Shown piece by piece: positions 15,337-58,189 of a DNA stretch of 64,000 nt. The position numbers and the translations under genes were made by a program. The stretch is from a virus: positions 1-64,000 of IMG/VR virus record IMGVR_UViG_3300046362_000084, one strand, 5' to 3'. The notes under the pieces were generated by a model, which was not told where the DNA came from, did not search any database, and was given only the letters and a program-made list of their open reading frames with translations. Each line of letters opens with the position of its first letter. Positions within the stretch are counted from its first letter, which is position 1.

Positions 15337-16071
15337 ATGACCCCGATTTTCTATTCACAATACAGTGGAAAAAGTTTGTTAACATTTGAAAAGCCCGAAA
15401 AGGCTCTGAAAAATCACAAGCAAAGTATCGCTACGATTTGTCTCGACAACGAAATCCAAAGCCCGGTTGTGGTTGATACCAAAATGACGGGAGTTGCGGA
15501 ACTGTTTCAAAATTTGGTTCCCCTTGGCCTTTCGCCGCGTTTCGGGCTTAACTATCGATTCGTTCACGAGAATAATCCTGACAATGCAAACAATTGGCAC
15601 AGGGTTGTTGTCTTTGTAAAAAATACACAAGGCTACAAAGATTTAATTAAGATCCACAATGTATCAAACATTGATTTCGGCGGTTTTATTACAGCGGAGG
15701 TTATGGAAAAGCATTGGACAGAAAACTTAAAACTGGCAATCCCGTTTTACGATAGCTACCTGTTTCGCAACACAATGTATGAAACCTTTTGCCTGCCTGA
15801 ATTTGGAAACGTTGAGCATACATTTTTCCACGAAGACAACGGACTTCCATTTGACGATCTTGTTGCCTCGAAGATTCCAGATAACAAAACATTGGTTAAA
15901 AGTATTTTTTACGAAAAAAACGCCGACTTTAAAACTTGGTTAACCTACCGATGCTGTTTGAATTTTTCGAACAAAGGGAAAAACAGAAGTTTAGAAAATC
16001 CAATGTTTGATCATTGTCACAGTAAGGAATTTAGCTTCGAAAGCTACTTAAATCATGTTAACTCTAAATAA
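15337..16071 (+). CDS. Free-standing PHP-like domain of DNA polymerase III alpha
   Basis: A 244-residue protein that aligns by eye with the N-terminal PHP region of DnaE. GVAELFQNLVPLGLSPRFGL near residues 49-68 corresponds to the 'x-x-L-x-G-A-V-E-F-Y...G-I-K-P-I-x-G' segment, and VVVFVKNTQGYKDLIKIHN near 89-107 to the 'L-L-A-K-N-x-x-G-Y-x-N-L' segment. The end (RCCLNFSNKGK) fits 'L-L-C-I-Q-T-G-K'. The metal-binding H-x-H motif is absent, so it is probably structural. The polymerase ORF at 17249 lacks this domain, which supports complementation of two polypeptides. Confidence 0.68.
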   Translation: MTPIFYSQYSGKSLLTFEKPEKALKNHKQSIATICLDNEIQSPVVVDTKMTGVAELFQNLVPLGLSPRFGLNYRFVHENNPDNANNWHRVVVFVKNTQGYKDLIKIHNVSNIDFGGFITAEVMEKHWTENLKLAIPFYDSYLFRNTMYETFCLPEFGNVEHTFFHEDNGLPFDDLVASKIPDNKTLVKSIFYEKNADFKTWLTYRCCLNFSNKGKNRSLENPMFDHCHSKEFSFESYLNHVNSK

Positions 16072-16654
16072 ACACTTTAATATAAAGTCAGACCCGCTTG
16101 AAAAGCATCCGAAAATAATTTTGGTTAGAAAGTTTAGCGAAATTAGTCTTGAAGAATTCACTAAAGATTTTATATACGCCGAATCTTCTGGCCAAGAAAT
16201 AATTCCGATACAAATCGATTCTCCGGGAGGCTGTGTTTACTCGCTTCTCGGCATGCTTGACGTTATCCAAAGGTCAAATAAAAATATTTGCACCTTCACC
16301 AACACAAAAGCATTTTCATGCGGTTCAGTTCTTCTTGCCGCTGGAACACCGGGATTTCGATTTGCCTCAAAAAACAGTTCGGTTTTAGTTCATGAAATGT
16401 CAGCAGGAACCTTTGGCAAAAGCAGTGAAATGCTTAACGATATGGACAATATTGTTGAGTTAAACGAAAAATTATTCTCGATCCTTGACAAGCTTTCTGG
16501 AAATTCAAAAGGGTTTTTTAAAGAAGAATTGAAACAAAATGGCAACGCCGACTTATACTATTCTCCGTCTAACGCGGTAAAGGTTGGCTTAATCGATAAA
16601 GTTAAATCTCCGTCTTTTGAGATTTTCCTAGATCAAAAATTCAAGCTTTTATAA
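16055..16654 (+). CDS. ClpP-like serine protease
   Basis: A 199-residue protein. IQIDSPGGCVYS near residues 50-61 is the oxyanion-hole glycine region, FSCGSVLLAAG near 87-97 carries the nucleophile Ser, SSVLVHEMS near 108-116 the catalytic His and ADLYYSPSNAVKVGLID near 165-181 the Asp, so the ClpP triad is complete. In many phages ClpP-fold enzymes are prohead proteases, but this one lies among polymerase genes. It might process a replication protein or modify host proteolysis. No ATPase partner is visible. Confidence 0.82.
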   Translation: MLTLNKHFNIKSDPLEKHPKIILVRKFSEISLEEFTKDFIYAESSGQEIIPIQIDSPGGCVYSLLGMLDVIQRSNKNICTFTNTKAFSCGSVLLAAGTPGFRFASKNSSVLVHEMSAGTFGKSSEMLNDMDNIVELNEKLFSILDKLSGNSKGFFKEELKQNGNADLYYSPSNAVKVGLIDKVKSPSFEIFLDQKFKLL

Positions 16655-16656
16655 CT

Positions 16657-17268
16657 ATGAATAACTTAGTCCTAGACACTGAAACAGAGTCGCTTTCGCT
16701 TGGCCTATCAAGACCTTGGCAGTTAGCCTTTATTTTTGAGGAAAACGGCAAAATTAAAAAAAGCGTCAATCACCACATCGATATCCATGATTTGAATGTT
16801 GGCAAGGACGCGGCCCGAATTACCGGATTTAATATAGACAAATATAATCAAATTAAAATTCCCGCGAATGATGTTATTGACGATATTGAGCCTTATTTGA
16901 TGAATGAAAATAATCGTTTAATTGGCCATAATATTCTTGGATTTGACATTTTTATGCTTGCCACATTATATAAGTATGCGGGCCGTAAGTTAGATTTTAA
17001 GAAAATTGTTTACCGATTTTACGATACGCTTTGCATTGCCCGCGCTCAACATTATGAGTCGCCACCGCCAAAAGATAAATACGAGTGGCTAGCTTGGCAG
17101 TATAAACACCTCGCAAAATTCGATAAATCATTTAAGGGAAGCCTTGCGGCCTGTTGTAAAAGAAACGATATTGAGGTTGACGAGACAAAAACGCATAACG
17201 CGCTTTATGACATTGAATTAAATTTAAAACTTTTTAATAAATTAAAATATGCCCTCGACCTTAATTAA
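16657..17268 (+). CDS. DnaQ-like 3'-5' exonuclease (DEDDh)
   Basis: A 203-residue protein. VLDTETESL near residues 5-13 is Exo I (D-x-E), LIGHNILGFDIFML near 88-101 is Exo II with its Asp, and HNALYDIELNLKLF near 182-195 is Exo III with His and Asp, placing it in the DEDDh group. It most likely proofreads for the polymerase III alpha encoded directly downstream, whose start it overlaps by 20 bases. Confidence 0.85.
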   Translation: MNNLVLDTETESLSLGLSRPWQLAFIFEENGKIKKSVNHHIDIHDLNVGKDAARITGFNIDKYNQIKIPANDVIDDIEPYLMNENNRLIGHNILGFDIFMLATLYKYAGRKLDFKKIVYRFYDTLCIARAQHYESPPPKDKYEWLAWQYKHLAKFDKSFKGSLAACCKRNDIEVDETKTHNALYDIELNLKLFNKLKYALDLN

Positions 17269-19570
17269 GGATTCATTTTTCGATGATTTTCAAGACGTAA
17301 CTTTCGACGTTAAAGGCGTTAGGTTGCCAAAAATTATCATTCCGCATCACTATTACGCGAAATTAGGTATTGATGAGTCCACCGACAACGAAGAGTTCCT
17401 TAAAATTCTGTGCCGTAACGGAATTAAGTCAAAAGGCTTAACTGGGAAAAAAGAGTATATGACTCGTTTAAAATACGAGTATGAAATCGTTAGTGAGATT
17501 GGCTTTTCAGATTATTTTATTCTAATTTGGGACGTTATTAACTTTTGCCACGAAAATGATATTCCAGTCGGAAAAGGCCGTGGAAGCGCGGCGGGTTCAT
17601 TAATCTTGTATCTCATTGGGGTGACAGGAATTGATCCAATTCAGAATGACCTTATCTTTGAGCGGTTTGTATCTCGCACGCGGGCGAAAAGTCAAATCAT
17701 TGATGGTGTTAGATACATTGACGGCGACATGGCTCCAGACGTTGACCTTGACATTTGCACAGATCGACGCGAAGAAGTAATTAATTACTTAAAAAATAAA
17801 TACAGCGGCAAATTCTGCAAGCTTCCAACCATTTCTACGTTGGCAACACGAGCGGCCATTAAGGACGTTTGTAAAATTCATGGTGGCTTTACAGAAGACG
17901 AACTGAACGTTTTAACAAAAACAATTCCGGTCAAATACGGCCAGCCGCTTTCCATTGTTGATAGTATCGAGGCGAGCGAGGTTTTCGCGCAGTTCGCGGA
18001 AGAGAACCCTGAAATCATAGAGTGCGCCAAGGTTGTTGAAGACATGATGCGCCAAAAGGGCAGTCACGCTTCTGCGTATCTTATCGGATATTATGATTTT
18101 GACCAATATCTTCCGTGCGAACTCGATCTAAACGGCGAAGTTGTTTGCTCGTTTGATATGAGTTACGCGCAGAAGGAAACCATCAAGCTGGACTTGCTTG
18201 GGCTTCACGGCGTAACACTTGTTTCAAGAATTGAGAAAAGTCTTGGAATTAGTTTTGATAATTTTGACCCCAACAACCCTGAAATCTATCAACTTTCAGA
18301 AGAGGGCGACTTGCCATACGGATTGTTCCAAATTGGTGCGGATGCTAACTACAGGGTATTTAAAAAAGTAAAGCCTCAGAATTGGGAGGAGCTTAGTGCA
18401 GTGGTTTCTTTAGCAAGGCCCGGAAGCCTAGCATACGTGGATGATTACATTAAAAACGAATATAATGACTATTGGGGCAACGCAAAAATGCGCGAACTAC
18501 TGGGAAAAACCCACGGAGTTCCTATATATCAGGAGACTACGATGAAAATATGCTCAGAAGTCTTTGGCTTCTCTCTTGATGAGGCGGAAGTTTTAAGAAA
18601 AATCATTGGTAAAAAACAGGTTGAAAAAGTAAAAGAGTGGGAAGCTAAGATTTTTTCGGCGGCAGAGAAAAGACAAATGCCAAAAGAGCTAGCGAAGTTT
18701 TTTTGGGACTTGCTAAACGAGTCGGCTAACTACTCCTTTAATAAATGCCTTTCGCCGGAAACTGAAGTCGAGACCCCGAATGGAAATAAGCCAATTAGGG
18801 ACGTTTCAATAGGTGAGAGGGTAAAAGGGTTTAGTGTCGAAGACTCGCGCCATGTTTGGGTAGAGGCGATTGATGTAATGAGAAGTGAATCCAAGCTTTT
18901 TGAATTCACTTTTGAGGACGGAAGAACAATAAAGTGTTCTATGGAGCATAAATTTCTAACAGACGAGGGTATGCTACCAATAAAGCTTATTGTTGAAAAG
19001 GATTTAGAAGTAATTTGCGAAAACCTTGAGGTTTTCAAGCCTGTTATGGGGTATAAAAATTATTATGAAATATCAAATAAGGGAACCATCAAGAGTCTCC
19101 CCAGACGGGGGAGGGTTGGACTGAGAATCTATGGGGGGTCAATAATGAAGCCTGAATTGGAAAAGGACGGATATCACAAAGTCATGTTGCAGACCACGAC
19201 ACACGGAAGAAAAAGATTTTTTGTCCATAGGCTTGTTGCAGAAGCATTTCTGCCTAATGTTAAAAAATTGTCATCAGTAAATCATAAAGACGGAAACAAA
19301 ACTAACAACTGTGTAGAAAATTTAGAATGGATTAGCGTGAGGGACAATAATCGACATGCATTTTCCACGGGTTTAAATAAATACAATAACGCTCTACCCG
19401 TTTTAAGGGGCGCAAAACACAACATGGCAAAGCTAGCGGACTCGGACGTAATAGAAATTAGAAGAAAATTTTTATCTGGCGAACGAATCAAAAACATATC
19501 ACTTAGCCACGGAATAACCTATGATAATGCTTGGTCTATTTGTAAGCGCAAATCTTGGAAACATATTTGA
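17249..19570 (+). CDS. dnaE: DNA polymerase III alpha, N-part, with split intein N-half and HNH endonuclease
   Basis: A 773-residue protein. Residues 1-499 are the Pol III alpha palm, thumb and fingers region: GKGRGSAAGSLILYLIGVTG near 109-128, catalytic PDVDLDIC near 162-169 and KLDLLGL near 313-319, giving the three aspartates. The protein ends at SFNK followed by Cys at residue 500, where an intein begins (CLSPETEVETP). Its N-half runs to about residue 595, then NUMOD4 and HNH motifs follow to the TGA. The PHP domain is absent and lies in a separate gene. The rest of the polymerase is in the next ORF, in another frame, starting inside this stop codon. Confidence 0.88.
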   Translation: MPSTLIKDSFFDDFQDVTFDVKGVRLPKIIIPHHYYAKLGIDESTDNEEFLKILCRNGIKSKGLTGKKEYMTRLKYEYEIVSEIGFSDYFILIWDVINFCHENDIPVGKGRGSAAGSLILYLIGVTGIDPIQNDLIFERFVSRTRAKSQIIDGVRYIDGDMAPDVDLDICTDRREEVINYLKNKYSGKFCKLPTISTLATRAAIKDVCKIHGGFTEDELNVLTKTIPVKYGQPLSIVDSIEASEVFAQFAEENPEIIECAKVVEDMMRQKGSHASAYLIGYYDFDQYLPCELDLNGEVVCSFDMSYAQKETIKLDLLGLHGVTLVSRIEKSLGISFDNFDPNNPEIYQLSEEGDLPYGLFQIGADANYRVFKKVKPQNWEELSAVVSLARPGSLAYVDDYIKNEYNDYWGNAKMRELLGKTHGVPIYQETTMKICSEVFGFSLDEAEVLRKIIGKKQVEKVKEWEAKIFSAAEKRQMPKELAKFFWDLLNESANYSFNKCLSPETEVETPNGNKPIRDVSIGERVKGFSVEDSRHVWVEAIDVMRSESKLFEFTFEDGRTIKCSMEHKFLTDEGMLPIKLIVEKDLEVICENLEVFKPVMGYKNYYEISNKGTIKSLPRRGRVGLRIYGGSIMKPELEKDGYHKVMLQTTTHGRKRFFVHRLVAEAFLPNVKKLSSVNHKDGNKTNNCVENLEWISVRDNNRHAFSTGLNKYNNALPVLRGAKHNMAKLADSDVIEIRRKFLSGERIKNISLSHGITYDNAWSICKRKSWKHI
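18746..19570 (+). mobile_element. Intein N-half with NUMOD4/HNH homing endonuclease
   Basis: The intein starts at the Cys codon 18746-18748. Block A is CLSPETEVETPNGNKPIRDV and block B is GRTIKCSMEHKFL, with Ser for the usual Thr in the T-x-x-H motif. After about 95 residues comes a NUMOD4 motif (GYKNYYEISNKGTIKSLPR), then KDGYHKVMLQ and FFVHRLVAEAFLPN, and an HNH motif (VNHKDGNKTNNCVENLEW). A small helix-turn-helix-like tail ends at TGA. The insertion point is between Lys and Ser of the conserved FNKSHAAAYS active-site region. That is three residues after the cyanobacterial DnaE split-intein site as I recall it (Tyr/Cys of YCFNKSHS). Confidence 0.85.
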
Positions 19571-19683
19571 TGAAAAAGATAAAAATTATTACATTTAAAG
19601 AAATTGAGGACAAGGAAAGCTACGACTTGGAAATAGACAGTAAGGATCATAACTTTTATGCCAACGGAATCGTTGTTTCTAAC
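19570..19683 (+). mobile_element. Intein C-half
   Basis: A 38-residue segment with block G at its end: DHNFYANGIVVSN, then Ser as the +1 extein nucleophile. It closely follows the layout of known 36-38 residue split-intein C-fragments (short basic start, D-x-x-x-x-x-D-H-N-F, final Asn). The penultimate residue is Ser, not His, as in some cyanobacterial DnaE inteins. It is encoded in a different frame from the N-half, so it must be made as a separate polypeptide unless a frameshift joins them. Confidence 0.85.
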
Positions 19684-20730
19684 TCTCACGCCGCAGCCTA
19701 TTCTCACCTTTCGGCCCTAACCCTTTATTTGAAATATAAGTATCCACAACACTTTTATACTGAGTGCCTTAGAATGGCTGAAAATAAGGCGGACAGTCAA
19801 GACCACGTTGCTCGTATCCAACAAGAGCTAGCGTTCTTCAACATCAAGTTGCTGCCGCCCGATCTAATCAATAGTAAGGAAAACTTTACAATCGAAGGCG
19901 ACAACATTCGCTATGGGTTCTCAAGTATCAAGGGTGTGAGTGAAAAATCACTTTCTGCGATGAAATCCTTTTTGGTTTCTCCAAAGACGAACAAGTTTGA
20001 GGTTTTCAGCGCTGCCGAAAACTGCAAGTTGAACGTTGGTGTTGTTTGCGCCATGATCCAATCGGGAATGTTAAGCAACGTTTCTCCAGACCGGGAAACC
20101 CTTGTTTTTGAAGCTCAAGTATGGGGTAAATTAACCGACAAGGAAAAAGTTTTCTGTCTTGAACGCGGACAGGATTATGAATATAACCTTTTACTTATGG
20201 TGAAGAACATTCATTCATGGGTAAATGATGCGGGCAAAAAGATCGCGGCGAAAACAAGGCTTGAGACAATTCGCAAGCATTGTGAGAAATACAAAGAAAT
20301 CTATTTCCAAAATAAAAAGAACGCCCGACTTGCTTCATATTACTACGAAAAGAAAATTCTCGGATTCTCCTATTCGTCAAACCTGAAAAGTGTTTTCGTC
20401 AGCGAACGCCCATCGATCAAAAATATCCAACAAATCAAAAATCTCTACGGGAAGCAAAAGATTGAGGGCGTATTTGAGGTTGCTGAAGTCAAGAAAGGCG
20501 TTAGCGGGCGCGGAAACAAGTATTTGAAGCTTGTTGTTCAAGATGAAACGGGACATTTCGACGCGATGATTGTTGGTGAGAAATACGATAATTTTGCAGC
20601 GAAGTTTCCTGACCCCGATGTGGGCGACGTTGTTTTCATCATGGGCGAGAAAACGGAGGAAATTATTTGGTTAAATAGCGTGTCTATCCAAACTCAAAAA
20701 ATCTATCTCAAATTGGCAGATATTAAATAA
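19570..20730 (+). CDS. dnaE: DNA polymerase III alpha, C-part, preceded by intein C-half
   Basis: A 386-residue protein from the ATG that overlaps the preceding stop as TGATG; an in-frame ATG at 19555 is less likely. Residues 1-38 are an intein C-terminal half, and from Ser 39 the sequence SHAAAYSHLSALTLYLKYKY resumes Pol III alpha. The helix-hairpin-helix region follows, and the last 100 residues form an OB fold (KIEGVFEVAEVKKGVSGRGN). Trans-splicing with the upstream protein would give an 847-residue polymerase without PHP domain. No beta-binding motif was identified with confidence. Confidence 0.86.
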   Translation: MKKIKIITFKEIEDKESYDLEIDSKDHNFYANGIVVSNSHAAAYSHLSALTLYLKYKYPQHFYTECLRMAENKADSQDHVARIQQELAFFNIKLLPPDLINSKENFTIEGDNIRYGFSSIKGVSEKSLSAMKSFLVSPKTNKFEVFSAAENCKLNVGVVCAMIQSGMLSNVSPDRETLVFEAQVWGKLTDKEKVFCLERGQDYEYNLLLMVKNIHSWVNDAGKKIAAKTRLETIRKHCEKYKEIYFQNKKNARLASYYYEKKILGFSYSSNLKSVFVSERPSIKNIQQIKNLYGKQKIEGVFEVAEVKKGVSGRGNKYLKLVVQDETGHFDAMIVGEKYDNFAAKFPDPDVGDVVFIMGEKTEEIIWLNSVSIQTQKIYLKLADIK

Positions 20731-54534: not shown

Positions 54535-57243
54535 TTAAGCTAAAAATCTAGCCTTAAACATGTTTTTTTTCTTCTCAGGAGTCTTAAGCAGGGCAAAGTA
54601 ACAAATTAATCCCCAGTTAGCCAAAACAAGTGCGGAATAAGAGTCTTTACGTGTTTTTGTTGGACCCGTCTGTTTCTGAAGGTTGGACGGAAGGTCAAAC
54701 CTTTGGGTTCCGGTTGCCCCTGTTGTAGCCTCAATAAGGGCGCACTGATTTTTTGTTTTACTAATAACCAAACTCTGATTATCAATAAAGTCGATTCGCT
54801 TGGTTTCAAGATCTTCCTTTTTGTTTCCGTAAATCTCAGTTTCGTTGAACTTGAGTTTTTGGATAGGGATGTCATCAAAATTAACTCCCTCAGCTTCCGT
54901 AGGCGCGGCAAACCAAATTCTTTTGCCGTCAATTGCGCCAGAAAGGCTTTCGTTAGCCGTTCTAATCCACTGAGCGCTGAAATACTGAGAATGAACAATA
55001 CGCTTTACTTTGCCCCCATTGTTATAAGATTGGCGAGCCTTAAACATTTCTTCCTCATCGAATACTTCAAATTCAGCGTCAAAAAAGTCCAAAGCAAACG
55101 GTAAAACCCCAAGATCATTAATATCCTTCACAAATTTAGCTCCACCCGCTTTATCGACAATCATATAAACAATGTTAAAATTATCAAAAATATATCGAAC
55201 GTAGTCCATTCGCTCAGAGAGGGAGCAAGACGCGACAGCATAACCATGAACCATATATCCATGTTGGTTGTCCTCATCTACCTCAAAAATTGTCATTGCG
55301 AAATCGTCAGACGTTTCGGACGCGTCATAGTTCGGGTCAATAGCTAGCAAATAATTCTTCGCGCCGTCCCCTTTAATTTTAACTGTTGGGCTTTCACCCT
55401 TTTTAAGGCTTATTTCATACAGCTTCTTTGCAGAGTAGAACCCCGAACTGTCGCCAGTAAATTTGGCCATATATTCTCGGTCGAACTGAGCGCGGGAGTA
55501 ACTTTTGCGGGCGTTTTCAACGTTGCTTTCGTCATAAAGGCCGACCGGAGCCATTTCACAACTCATTTGCATGATAGCGTGAGAAACGTTCTTGGCCGAT
55601 TGATCGTTGATTTTCTCAGAATAGTCTTTATACATTTCATAAAGATATTCAAATTCATAACTTGCGGAGGTAAGCCCAATAAGTTTATTATTCGGAAATA
55701 TCGTCCTGTCTTCCGGCTTCATAAGCCCAGCCTCAATAAGTTCGATTTCCGCCTCGCGAACCTTTTGGCGTTCACGCGGATCAATCTGAATAGCCATGAA
55801 GGGAAGTAGAACTTCATTGATGACCTTTTCGGATAAAAGCAAAAGTTCGTCAATAACCAATAAATTAAAACGATATCCCCGAATTTTATCGCCTGAATTA
55901 TGACTACAAAATCCATTTACGATATAGTTATTTTCTACAGGAACGCGCAGATCATAGGTCTGCCTTTCACCCAGTGGAGTAACATTTCTAACGCAATCAA
56001 TAAAAAAGTCTTTTCCGAACCCATGCTTGACCCTCCTTTTTGGTGCGGCGGCAATTACACTTTCTCTAACTTTGATTTTTTTGGCATGTTTTTCAAAGAA
56101 ATGGCTTTTACCATCCCCAATTTCCTTACCAAAGACGCGGATATTTTTATAATTTAATTTAATTGAATTGCTTATTCTTGAAGAAACGATGCCAAAGCAC
56201 AGTAAATACTGTTGAATGTTCAACGCAATTTCCTCGTTAGCCAATTTAAGAGTCCAAACTTGATCGCCGCTCGCCCTCTTAAAAGACTTTACCCCTGTTT
56301 CAAAAAGGCCAGATAGAAAGCCCTTTCCGAACTCTTTGGTGCAACTGAAAATACGCTCCTCTTGAACTGAAGAGAAAAATTGCTCCGAACCGTATTTATA
56401 TCCAAGATCATACCCTAAATTGTATTCAGGCTGCGAGCATTCATACCTTTGCTTACTAAGCAGAATTCTATCTTGAAAGTTAAGCTGAGAGCAAATTTTC
56501 CAAACAAATTCTTCCCCATTATAAGCTAAAAATTCATGGTTTTCTCCAGCCGTTACCTTAAAGCCTTTTTTAGTAATAACTTCGTAACACTTTTGTTTTC
56601 CTGCGTTCAAAACGTGAGAAGCCCTAGAGCGAGACTTTAAAGTGTCCACAGATAGCGGGGAGTTCTCCCAACTATTGGGTTCGTCCTTTGCGTAATCTTC
56701 AATTTTAACAAGGCCCCGGTCAGATCTAACACGACTATTCGCGCCAAAACAGCCAAGCGGAATTGCAACAATCTTGGATTGTCCAATTTGCATTTCCCAC
56801 GCATCGCTTCTATGGCTAGGTTTGCCAACCAAGCACTGCCTAAGATATTTACCCCCCTCAGAGTATGCCATGCTTTCAATTTTAGAAAATATCGATCTTG
56901 CTTGACGGAAAGTTGAGCTGGTAATCCCGATTGTCACTCCGGGGTTAAAAATAGCATAAAGAGGAACAAATATCGCCGCGATAGTCGTTTTCCCGAGTCC
57001 TCGACCTGCGACACCGAGAAAATAATCGCGGCTATTCATTGCTCGAAGCATAATATCTTGAAACGGATAGATATCTACGCCCATCAAAAGGTTGGCTGCA
57101 AAAGCTGGATTTGCACAGCAAAATTTTGCAAAAGAAACCTGAGCGTCTCTTGAACTGATTTCCCCCTCAATTAATCCTAATTTTTTATTGGTATCCGTAA
57201 GGAACGGATCTTTTAAAGTATGGTAACCCTCCTGCCAAGCCAT
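54535..57243 (-). CDS. terL: Terminase large subunit, interrupted by an intein
   Basis: A 902-residue precursor from the ATG at 57243 (an earlier in-frame start at 57291 lies inside the upstream gene). GVAGRGLGKTTIAA near 77-90 is Walker A. The intein starts at Cys 165 and ends at Asn 449. After it GDKIRGYRF and NLLVIDELLLL (Walker B with Glu) resume the ATPase. LAIDPNYDASETSDDF and MIVDKAGGAKFVKDI mark the RNase H-like nuclease. The spliced protein would be 617 residues, close to T4 gp17. It packages DNA through the portal encoded next. Confidence 0.9.
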   Translation of the reverse strand: MAWQEGYHTLKDPFLTDTNKKLGLIEGEISSRDAQVSFAKFCCANPAFAANLLMGVDIYPFQDIMLRAMNSRDYFLGVAGRGLGKTTIAAIFVPLYAIFNPGVTIGITSSTFRQARSIFSKIESMAYSEGGKYLRQCLVGKPSHRSDAWEMQIGQSKIVAIPLGCFGANSRVRSDRGLVKIEDYAKDEPNSWENSPLSVDTLKSRSRASHVLNAGKQKCYEVITKKGFKVTAGENHEFLAYNGEEFVWKICSQLNFQDRILLSKQRYECSQPEYNLGYDLGYKYGSEQFFSSVQEERIFSCTKEFGKGFLSGLFETGVKSFKRASGDQVWTLKLANEEIALNIQQYLLCFGIVSSRISNSIKLNYKNIRVFGKEIGDGKSHFFEKHAKKIKVRESVIAAAPKRRVKHGFGKDFFIDCVRNVTPLGERQTYDLRVPVENNYIVNGFCSHNSGDKIRGYRFNLLVIDELLLLSEKVINEVLLPFMAIQIDPRERQKVREAEIELIEAGLMKPEDRTIFPNNKLIGLTSASYEFEYLYEMYKDYSEKINDQSAKNVSHAIMQMSCEMAPVGLYDESNVENARKSYSRAQFDREYMAKFTGDSSGFYSAKKLYEISLKKGESPTVKIKGDGAKNYLLAIDPNYDASETSDDFAMTIFEVDEDNQHGYMVHGYAVASCSLSERMDYVRYIFDNFNIVYMIVDKAGGAKFVKDINDLGVLPFALDFFDAEFEVFDEEEMFKARQSYNNGGKVKRIVHSQYFSAQWIRTANESLSGAIDGKRIWFAAPTEAEGVNFDDIPIQKLKFNETEIYGNKKEDLETKRIDFIDNQSLVISKTKNQCALIEATTGATGTQRFDLPSNLQKQTGPTKTRKDSYSALVLANWGLICYFALLKTPEKKKNMFKARFLA
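55897..56751 (-). mobile_element. Intein in TerL with decayed LAGLIDADG domain
   Basis: A 285-residue in-frame insertion. It starts CFGANSRVRSDRGLVKIEDY (block A with Cys1), has VTAGENHEFLAY (block B with His) and ends NNYIVNGFCSHN then Ser (blocks F and G, His-Asn). In the middle YNLGYDLGYKYG and FLSGLFETGV sit where the two LAGLIDADG helices should be, but the second lacks the D-A/G-D-G ending. The splicing residues look intact, so splicing should work while homing is probably lost. It separates Walker A from Walker B, so an unspliced terminase would be inactive. Confidence 0.87.
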
Positions 57244-57244
57244 A

Positions 57245-58189
57245 TTATAATGAGTCCTCCACAATTTTAATATCAAGCTCCCCAAGCTCATACATGAACT
57301 GAAGATCTACCGATTCGATTATGTTTTTATTATTTAAAAGCATTTTAATATATTCTTTTGCCTCTTCCCTCCCATCAACAAACAAAAATTGAACCTCCGG
57401 GAATTCGCGGGAAATTTTACGCAACCCATGAAACGCACTCTCACCTGTAACTTTTTGTTTTGTAAATTTTAAAGGAAGATAAGTGAAGCATTTTTGATAT
57501 GTTTCCTCTATTAAGACTACAATAGTTATATCCATAGCCCGTGCTTTTTCGCACTCTTTTCTAAACCTATCCAACCCCTTTGTAAAGGTTCCGATAAAGT
57601 CCGCTTTGGATTTACGGTCAACATGAACTCCGTTGTAGTTTTCTTTACTTAGTGTGTAGTCCCCAACATTAATTGTAGTTTTTTCACAATCAAAAAGGGG
57701 TTGTTGCTCCCGGGTATCAACAAGAATTTCGCATTCTTTGGATTCAAACTGCAACCAACGAGCGGAATAATCAAAATTAGAATTAATACCATTCGCCCGC
57801 GCCCGCTCAACAAACTCAAGGAAAAAACCCTCCTTGTCCATGAAATCGTAGCGTAGGTTTTTTGAAGACCTCCACTCACAGTATGTTGGAAGCCTTCCTC
57901 TTGATTTTGCGGAGCAGTCGGCCAACTGCTTCATTAAAACGTCTCCAGAAACCGCCTGTAGCCCATTGCGCCTAAGATAGGCGAACTCAGACCGCTTATC
58001 TATGAAAAGTCGAGTGGAATAATCTTCAACCCTTGAAAAGGGAATCGGGTTTCCGTTGAAAAGGTCAAACTTCGGGAAGTATTTTTCATAATATTCCTTT
58101 TGAGCCGTATTCTCAACCTTGGCCAAATGATTGTGTAGGCTCCGATAGGAATTGAACCCTAGGCCGCATATTTTGCATGTAAAATCCAT
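57245..58189 (-). CDS. ERCC4-type nuclease with C2H2 zinc finger
   Basis: A 314-residue protein. Residues 4-27 (CKICGLGFNSYRSLHNHL) are a C2H2-like zinc finger. The C-terminal half is an XPF/ERCC4 nuclease: ILVDTREQQPL near 155-165, NVGDYTL near 172-178 and VHVDRKSKADF near 189-199 give the V-D-x-R-E...G-D-Y...x-E/D-R-K core, with Asp in place of Glu before Arg-Lys. It likely cuts branched DNA. It ends two bases before TerL, which suggests a link with packaging or resolving replicated DNA. Confidence 0.8.
   Translation of the reverse strand: MDFTCKICGLGFNSYRSLHNHLAKVENTAQKEYYEKYFPKFDLFNGNPIPFSRVEDYSTRLFIDKRSEFAYLRRNGLQAVSGDVLMKQLADCSAKSRGRLPTYCEWRSSKNLRYDFMDKEGFFLEFVERARANGINSNFDYSARWLQFESKECEILVDTREQQPLFDCEKTTINVGDYTLSKENYNGVHVDRKSKADFIGTFTKGLDRFRKECEKARAMDITIVVLIEETYQKCFTYLPLKFTKQKVTGESAFHGLRKISREFPEVQFLFVDGREEAKEYIKMLLNNKNIIESVDLQFMYELGELDIKIVEDSL

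What the first reader, a model, noticed from the sequence alone, without database searches (positions are those of the whole stretch)
18746..19683. Split intein with a built-in NUMOD4/HNH endonuclease in a phage DNA polymerase III alpha
The polymerase is interrupted at its conserved FNK/SHAAAY site. The first ORF ends with an intein N-half fused to a NUMOD4/HNH endonuclease. The second starts inside its stop codon (TGATG), in another frame, with a 38-residue intein C-half and a Ser +1 residue. All splicing landmarks are present (Cys1, block B His, final Asn), so the polymerase probably becomes whole only by protein trans-splicing. Cyanobacterial DnaE split inteins use a site three residues upstream and carry no endonuclease, as I recall. 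Here the endonuclease stays attached to the N-half, so this may be an intermediate between a large intein and a split one. A single sequencing indel joining the frames is the main alternative.
Basis: partly seen in the sequence, partly recalled or inferred. Interest (0 to 1): 0.92.

Follow-up and report, generated by a model that had tools for sequence, protein, structure and literature searches.

The report
Split intein fused to homing endonuclease
A phage's DNA-copying enzyme is made as two separate proteins that should stitch themselves together, and one of the stitching parts carries a fused DNA-cutting enzyme; related phages put different cutting enzymes, or none, at the same spot, so one gene shows many stages of how such mobile elements evolve.

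Summary
DnaE is cut after FNK by an intein N-half (18746-19021) that runs in frame into a complete NUMOD4/HNH endonuclease (19022-19567). A 38-residue C-half starts at the overlapping ATG (19570), with Ser+1 SHAAAY. A second IMG/VR contig has the same 14.3 kb with one mismatch and no gaps.

The site is a hot spot. After collapsing identical IntN sequences, about 58 loci have a split intein there: 42 with a separate ORF between the halves (Vsr-like in many; also LAGLIDADG and GIY-YIG), 13 with a short gap and no intact endonuclease ORF, and 3 (window, L134, L150) with a NUMOD4/HNH fused to the N-half. Contiguous inteins and intein-free DnaE occur too.

This is a naturally split intein of the 'fractured gene' kind, in a variant with the endonuclease fused to IntN. 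Most likely an already split intein captured an HNH gene. Trees do not resolve the direction; splicing and cleavage are untested. Two relatives carry an endonuclease nested out of frame inside a contiguous intein.

The parts
17249..18745 (+). DNA polymerase III alpha, N-extein, ending ...ANYSFNK
   Evidence: PF07733 and PF17657; polc profile TIGR00594 positions 273-750
18746..19021 (+). Intein N-half (IntN), about 92 aa, Cys1 at 18746-18748
   Evidence: TIGR01445 over cut-off; Npu DnaE IntN match E about 1e-9; ends where unfused relatives have their stop
19022..19567 (+). NUMOD4/HNH_3 endonuclease, 182 aa, fused in frame to IntN
   Evidence: NUMOD4 and HNH_3 over cut-off; I-HmuI match E 8e-15 and top structural hit
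19568..19572 (+). TGATG: stop of the first ORF overlaps the start of the second, in another frame
   Evidence: sequence; identical in L001
19570..19683 (+). Intein C-half (IntC), 38 aa, ending Ser-Asn
   Evidence: TIGR01443 over cut-off; weaker PDB matches; conserved start in relatives
19684..20730 (+). DNA polymerase III alpha, C-extein, Ser+1, SHAAAY...
   Evidence: HHH_6 PF14579; polc profile from position 749

Best explanation
The phage polymerase is encoded as two precursors, DnaE-N-IntN-HNH and IntC-DnaE-C, translated from overlapping ORFs. IntN and IntC associate, and Cys1, the terminal Asn and Ser+1 carry out protein trans-splicing that joins FNK to SHAAAY and gives a whole polymerase. 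The excised IntN-HNH remains as a homing endonuclease that should cut intein-free dnaE alleles near the FNK/SHA codons in co-infecting phages, so that repair copies the split intein, the HNH and the break between the genes together. The element most likely arose when a free-standing NUMOD4/HNH gene lodged between the halves of an already split intein and was joined to IntN by loss of the IntN stop and the HNH start. Shown: anatomy, conservation, family context, intact motifs. Inferred: splicing, cleavage, homing, direction of evolution.
For: All splicing landmarks and both half-intein profiles are present. A second contig has the identical junction. Two other phages have the same fused architecture. 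Many split inteins occur at the same site with separate endonuclease ORFs of other families or none, with intein-free relatives interspersed in the tree. The HNH is full length, and IntN ends where relatives stop. The model of IntN-HNH resembles I-HmuI plus the Npu DnaE split intein.
Against: No splicing or cleavage was tested. No free-standing NUMOD4/HNH between split halves was found at this site, so the proposed precursor is missing. The trees do not resolve the direction. IntC matches solved inteins only weakly.
Confidence: 0.78

Rival explanations
1. A former contiguous intein with an in-frame NUMOD4/HNH insert broke between the HNH and IntC, so the window is a transitional form on the way to a fully split intein.
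For: The HNH lies at the usual endonuclease position and IntC follows at once. Contiguous inteins, some with an HNH of another type (L113, PF01844), use the same site.
Against: No contiguous intein with an in-frame NUMOD4/HNH was found at this site. Relatives with no endonuclease, or with other endonuclease families, are already split at the same place. The fusion joins IntN at its normal end to an HNH from its normal start.
Confidence: 0.2
2. The intein halves are dead and the two polymerase parts work as a non-covalent complex, as reported for phage polymerases and reductases split by endonuclease genes (PMC2988022).
For: Split T4-type gene 43 and nrdA products are reported to function without splicing (PMC2988022).
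Against: Cys1, the block B His, block F, the terminal Asn and Ser+1 are all kept here and across the divergent split relatives, which suggests selection for splicing.
Confidence: 0.06
3. A ribosomal frameshift at the overlap makes a contiguous IntN-HNH-IntC polypeptide that splices in cis.
For: The two frames overlap at TGATG.
Against: No recognisable slippery heptamer at the overlap. In L134 IntC starts after the stop in another frame, and in L150 the ORFs are 623 nt apart. Short gene overlaps are common in this genome.
Confidence: 0.03
4. A sequencing or assembly indel broke an ordinary contiguous intein.
For: The frames change at a single point.
Against: A second assembly is identical across the junction. 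The same fused and split layout occurs in two divergent phages, and split halves are the rule in the family.
Confidence: 0.02

Closest known systems
Fractured genes (Dassa et al. 2009, doi 10.1093/nar/gkp095; paper not held here, content recalled and cited in PMC7090010 and PMC11766414)
   Same: A phage-type DNA enzyme gene broken in two by a split intein with an endonuclease gene at the break; Vsr-like endonucleases are common. Most relatives found here fit this layout.
   Different: In the window, L134 and L150 the endonuclease has no start of its own: it is fused in frame to the intein N-half, and it is NUMOD4/HNH.
Cyanobacterial DnaE split inteins (Npu, Ssp)
   Same: Split intein in DnaE, similar IntN and IntC lengths, Ser-Asn end; IntN is the closest solved relative.
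   Different: Site four residues further on (SFNK|SHA instead of Y|CFNK, the latter from memory), Ser+1 instead of Cys+1, phage gene, endonuclease attached.
I-HmuI-type NUMOD4/HNH homing endonucleases
   Same: Same domain order and sequence from the N-terminus on.
   Different: Here joined to an intein half instead of lying in a group I intron or standing alone.
Bifunctional contiguous inteins with an endonuclease
   Same: Endonuclease at the usual insertion position of the Hint fold.
   Different: The chain is broken after the endonuclease; IntC is a separate product.
ShiLan hidden HNH in a phage methylase (PMC11855218)
   Same: Endonuclease hidden in another frame of a phage gene, as in relatives L184 and L236.
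   Different: ShiLan has no detectable splicing domain and is an HNH; L184 and L236 are recognisable inteins with a Vsr-like nuclease. The window itself is in frame.

Membership tests
Intein | Cys/Ser/Thr at position 1, block B His, block F, terminal Asn, nucleophile at +1, in-frame at a conserved site of the host protein | tested here: met
   conserved across relatives
Intein | Intein-free homologues with the intact site | tested here: met
   L008 (59% identical), L002, L003, L005, L006, L010 and others have an uninterrupted FNKSH
Intein | Protein splicing activity | not testable with these tools
   needs expression of the halves
Naturally split intein | Halves encoded by separate ORFs, split at the usual endonuclease position | tested here: met
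   identical in a second contig
Naturally split intein | Trans-splicing of the two halves | not testable with these tools
   needs co-expression
Fractured gene (Dassa et al. 2009) | Host enzyme gene broken in two by a split intein, with an endonuclease at the break | tested here: met
Fractured gene (Dassa et al. 2009) | Endonuclease gene is free-standing (own start) | tested here: not met
   In the window the HNH is in frame with IntN and has no start at its N-terminus. Met in most relatives.
Bifunctional contiguous intein | IntN, endonuclease and IntC in one polypeptide | tested here: not met
   stop at 19568-19570, IntC in another frame
Cyanobacterial-type DnaE split intein | Insertion at Y|CFNK with Cys+1 | tested here: not met
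   Here SFNK|SHAAAY with Ser+1; the cyanobacterial site is from memory
NUMOD4/HNH homing endonuclease | NUMOD4 and HNH_3 domains with the conserved His and Asn residues | tested here: met
NUMOD4/HNH homing endonuclease | Cuts the empty allele and drives its own spread | not testable with these tools
   needs cleavage and co-infection assays; the patchy distribution is only suggestive

The most novel reading that the evidence does not exclude
An IntN-fused endonuclease is a distinct, heritable intein architecture found in two phage polymerase lineages. Trans-splicing itself would release the IntN-endonuclease, tying homing-nuclease output to polymerase maturation, and the architecture would link free-standing and embedded endonucleases at a single site that has hosted several endonuclease families.
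Probability: 0.45. Interest if true: 0.75.

Novelty: new variant of a known kind. Interest (0 to 1): 0.66.

Why it matters
How inteins become split, and how they gain and lose endonucleases, is usually inferred from scattered cases. Here one insertion site in one gene family shows intein-free alleles, contiguous mini-inteins, contiguous inteins with HNH, split inteins with free-standing endonucleases of several families, a partly deleted endonuclease, split inteins without one, and N-half-fused ones. That makes the order of events directly testable. The family is also a source of new natural split inteins, including ones whose IntN bears a 180-residue C-terminal fusion.

Tried and rejected
An 18-base palindrome at the IntN/HNH junction (19019-19036) looked like a regulatory hairpin of the kind cited for the mobE endonuclease gene; the local fold is not better than shuffles (z -1.0) and the two other fused loci lack it, so it is not used. 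Internal start at ATG 19046: it would cut into NUMOD4 and the nearest GAGG is 14 nt away; unlikely. Foreign base composition of the HNH: GC 0.383 against 0.415, uninformative. Promoter and terminator scans gave no more than chance. The genome-contig scan gave one true hit, a Verrucomicrobiales MAG contig (L128) with the split intein and no endonuclease ORF; the rest were chance matches. PADLOC names the HNH only as a homing endonuclease. Split polymerases of phages KLEB27-3 and phiT1 are uninterrupted at this site, so their breaks lie elsewhere. Several paper searches found no description of this arrangement.

Full report
What is there. ORF 17249-19570 encodes the N-terminal part of a phage DNA polymerase III alpha (PF07733, PF17657) that ends ...ANYSFNK. 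It runs without a break into an intein N-terminal region and then NUMOD4 and HNH_3 domains. The stop TGA overlaps the ATG of the next ORF (TGATG, 19568-19572), which is in another frame. That ORF opens with an intein C-half of 38 residues and continues with SHAAAY and the rest of the polymerase. Cys1, the block B histidine, block F (DHNFYANGI), the terminal Asn and Ser+1 are all present. IntN's best solved relative is Npu DnaE IntN, and the endonuclease's is I-HmuI. An AlphaFold model of IntN-HNH (mean pLDDT 85, pTM 0.60) finds I-HmuI and the Npu DnaE split intein as its top structural matches. P0002 matches only one place in the 67.7 kb record.

Not an artefact. A second IMG/VR contig of 166 kb carries the same 14.3 kb with one mismatch and no gaps, junction included. 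Stronger still, two divergent phages have the same fused arrangement followed by a separate IntC ORF. In L134 the IntC start lies 11 nt after the stop; in L150 it lies 623 nt later, after an MT-A70 methyltransferase gene with one in-frame stop.

The family. A DNA pattern for ANYSFNKC (Cys1 directly after FNK) and two profile scans of IMG/VR, followed by an HMM classification, show a hot spot. After collapsing identical IntN sequences, about 58 loci have a split intein here. Forty-two have a separate ORF between the halves. Those identified include Vsr-like EDxHD proteins, often with NUMOD3 (L090, L097, L102 and others; the Vsr-like call rests on motifs and recalled family features, since Pfam shows only NUMOD3 and sub-threshold nuclease matches), LAGLIDADG (L094), and GIY-YIG on the opposite strand (L089). 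Not every intervening ORF was identified. Thirteen have only a short gap, among them L108/L109, where only the C-terminal end of a Vsr-like gene is left. Three are N-fused: window, L134, L150. Contiguous mini-inteins (L157, L212, L235; Rhodococcus phages Peregrin, Weasels2 and NiceHouse) and contiguous HNH inteins (L095, L113) use the same site. Intein-free polymerases are interspersed in the tree, and the window's closest polymerase, L008, is intein-free.

Reading of the fusion. In the alignment, unfused IntN sequences stop at ...IICSY...IVCNS or ...MCK, in line with ...EVICEN of the window. Free-standing HNH proteins begin with Met (MEVWKDI, MEIWKPI) where the window has LEVFKPV. So the fusion is a complete IntN plus a complete HNH protein with almost no linker. 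The three fused HNH parts match each other (41-47% identity) better than any free-standing one found. Their tree group also includes one free-standing HNH (94/92 support), and neither intein nor HNH data prove or reject a single origin (AU p 0.47 and 0.37). In the polymerase tree L134 and L150 form one group and the window lies in another, so the fused form either moved between lineages or arose more than once.

Mechanism (inferred). The two precursors are probably translationally coupled through the TGATG overlap; short overlaps are common in this genome. IntN and IntC assemble and trans-splice the polymerase, leaving IntN-HNH as a potential homing endonuclease for intein-free dnaE genes. Neither splicing nor cleavage has been tested.

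Relation to what is known. The layout of most relatives is the fractured-gene arrangement of Dassa et al. 2009, as I recall it and as it is cited in PMC7090010 and PMC11766414; the paper itself was not held. The window fails one defining feature of that class, a free-standing endonuclease, so it is best called a fused variant of it. It differs from the cyanobacterial DnaE split inteins by site and +1 residue. I found no paper describing a natural split intein with an endonuclease fused to its N-half, but the library lacks most subscription papers, so novelty is not proven.

Verdict. New variant of a known kind, with an unusually complete series of relatives at one site.

Noticed in passing
L184 (IMGVR 3300000374_000001) and L236 (IMGVR 3300031952_004490), intein region of DnaE: A Vsr-like EDxHD endonuclease ORF lies in the +1 frame inside a contiguous intein at this site, while the intein frame stays open through 270-290 codons into IntC. 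Synonymous recoding of the endonuclease frame gives 22-26 stops on average and none of 20,000 trials had zero, so both frames seem to be kept. A possible dual-coding intein, compare ShiLan (PMC11855218).
   Followed up: partly
L150, 4415-4987: An MT-A70-type methyltransferase gene with one in-frame TAG lies between the fused HNH and the IntC ORF.
   Followed up: partly
window 54535-57291 (-): A second intein, contiguous and with a LAGLIDADG-like domain, interrupts the terminase large subunit.
   Followed up: partly
window 15337-20730: The polymerase functions are spread over several genes: a weak PHP-domain match (15337-16071), a DnaQ-like exonuclease (16657-17268) and the two halves of the polymerase core; a ClpP-like protease gene (16055-16654) lies among them.
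   Followed up: no
window 19019-19036: Perfect 8-bp inverted repeat with a 2-base loop exactly at the IntN/HNH junction; the local fold is not better than shuffles and L134 and L150 lack it.
   Followed up: yes
L108/L109 between the intein halves: Only the last 90 or so codons of a Vsr-like endonuclease remain between the halves, while close relative L102 has the full gene: an apparent endonuclease deletion that left the intein split.
   Followed up: partly
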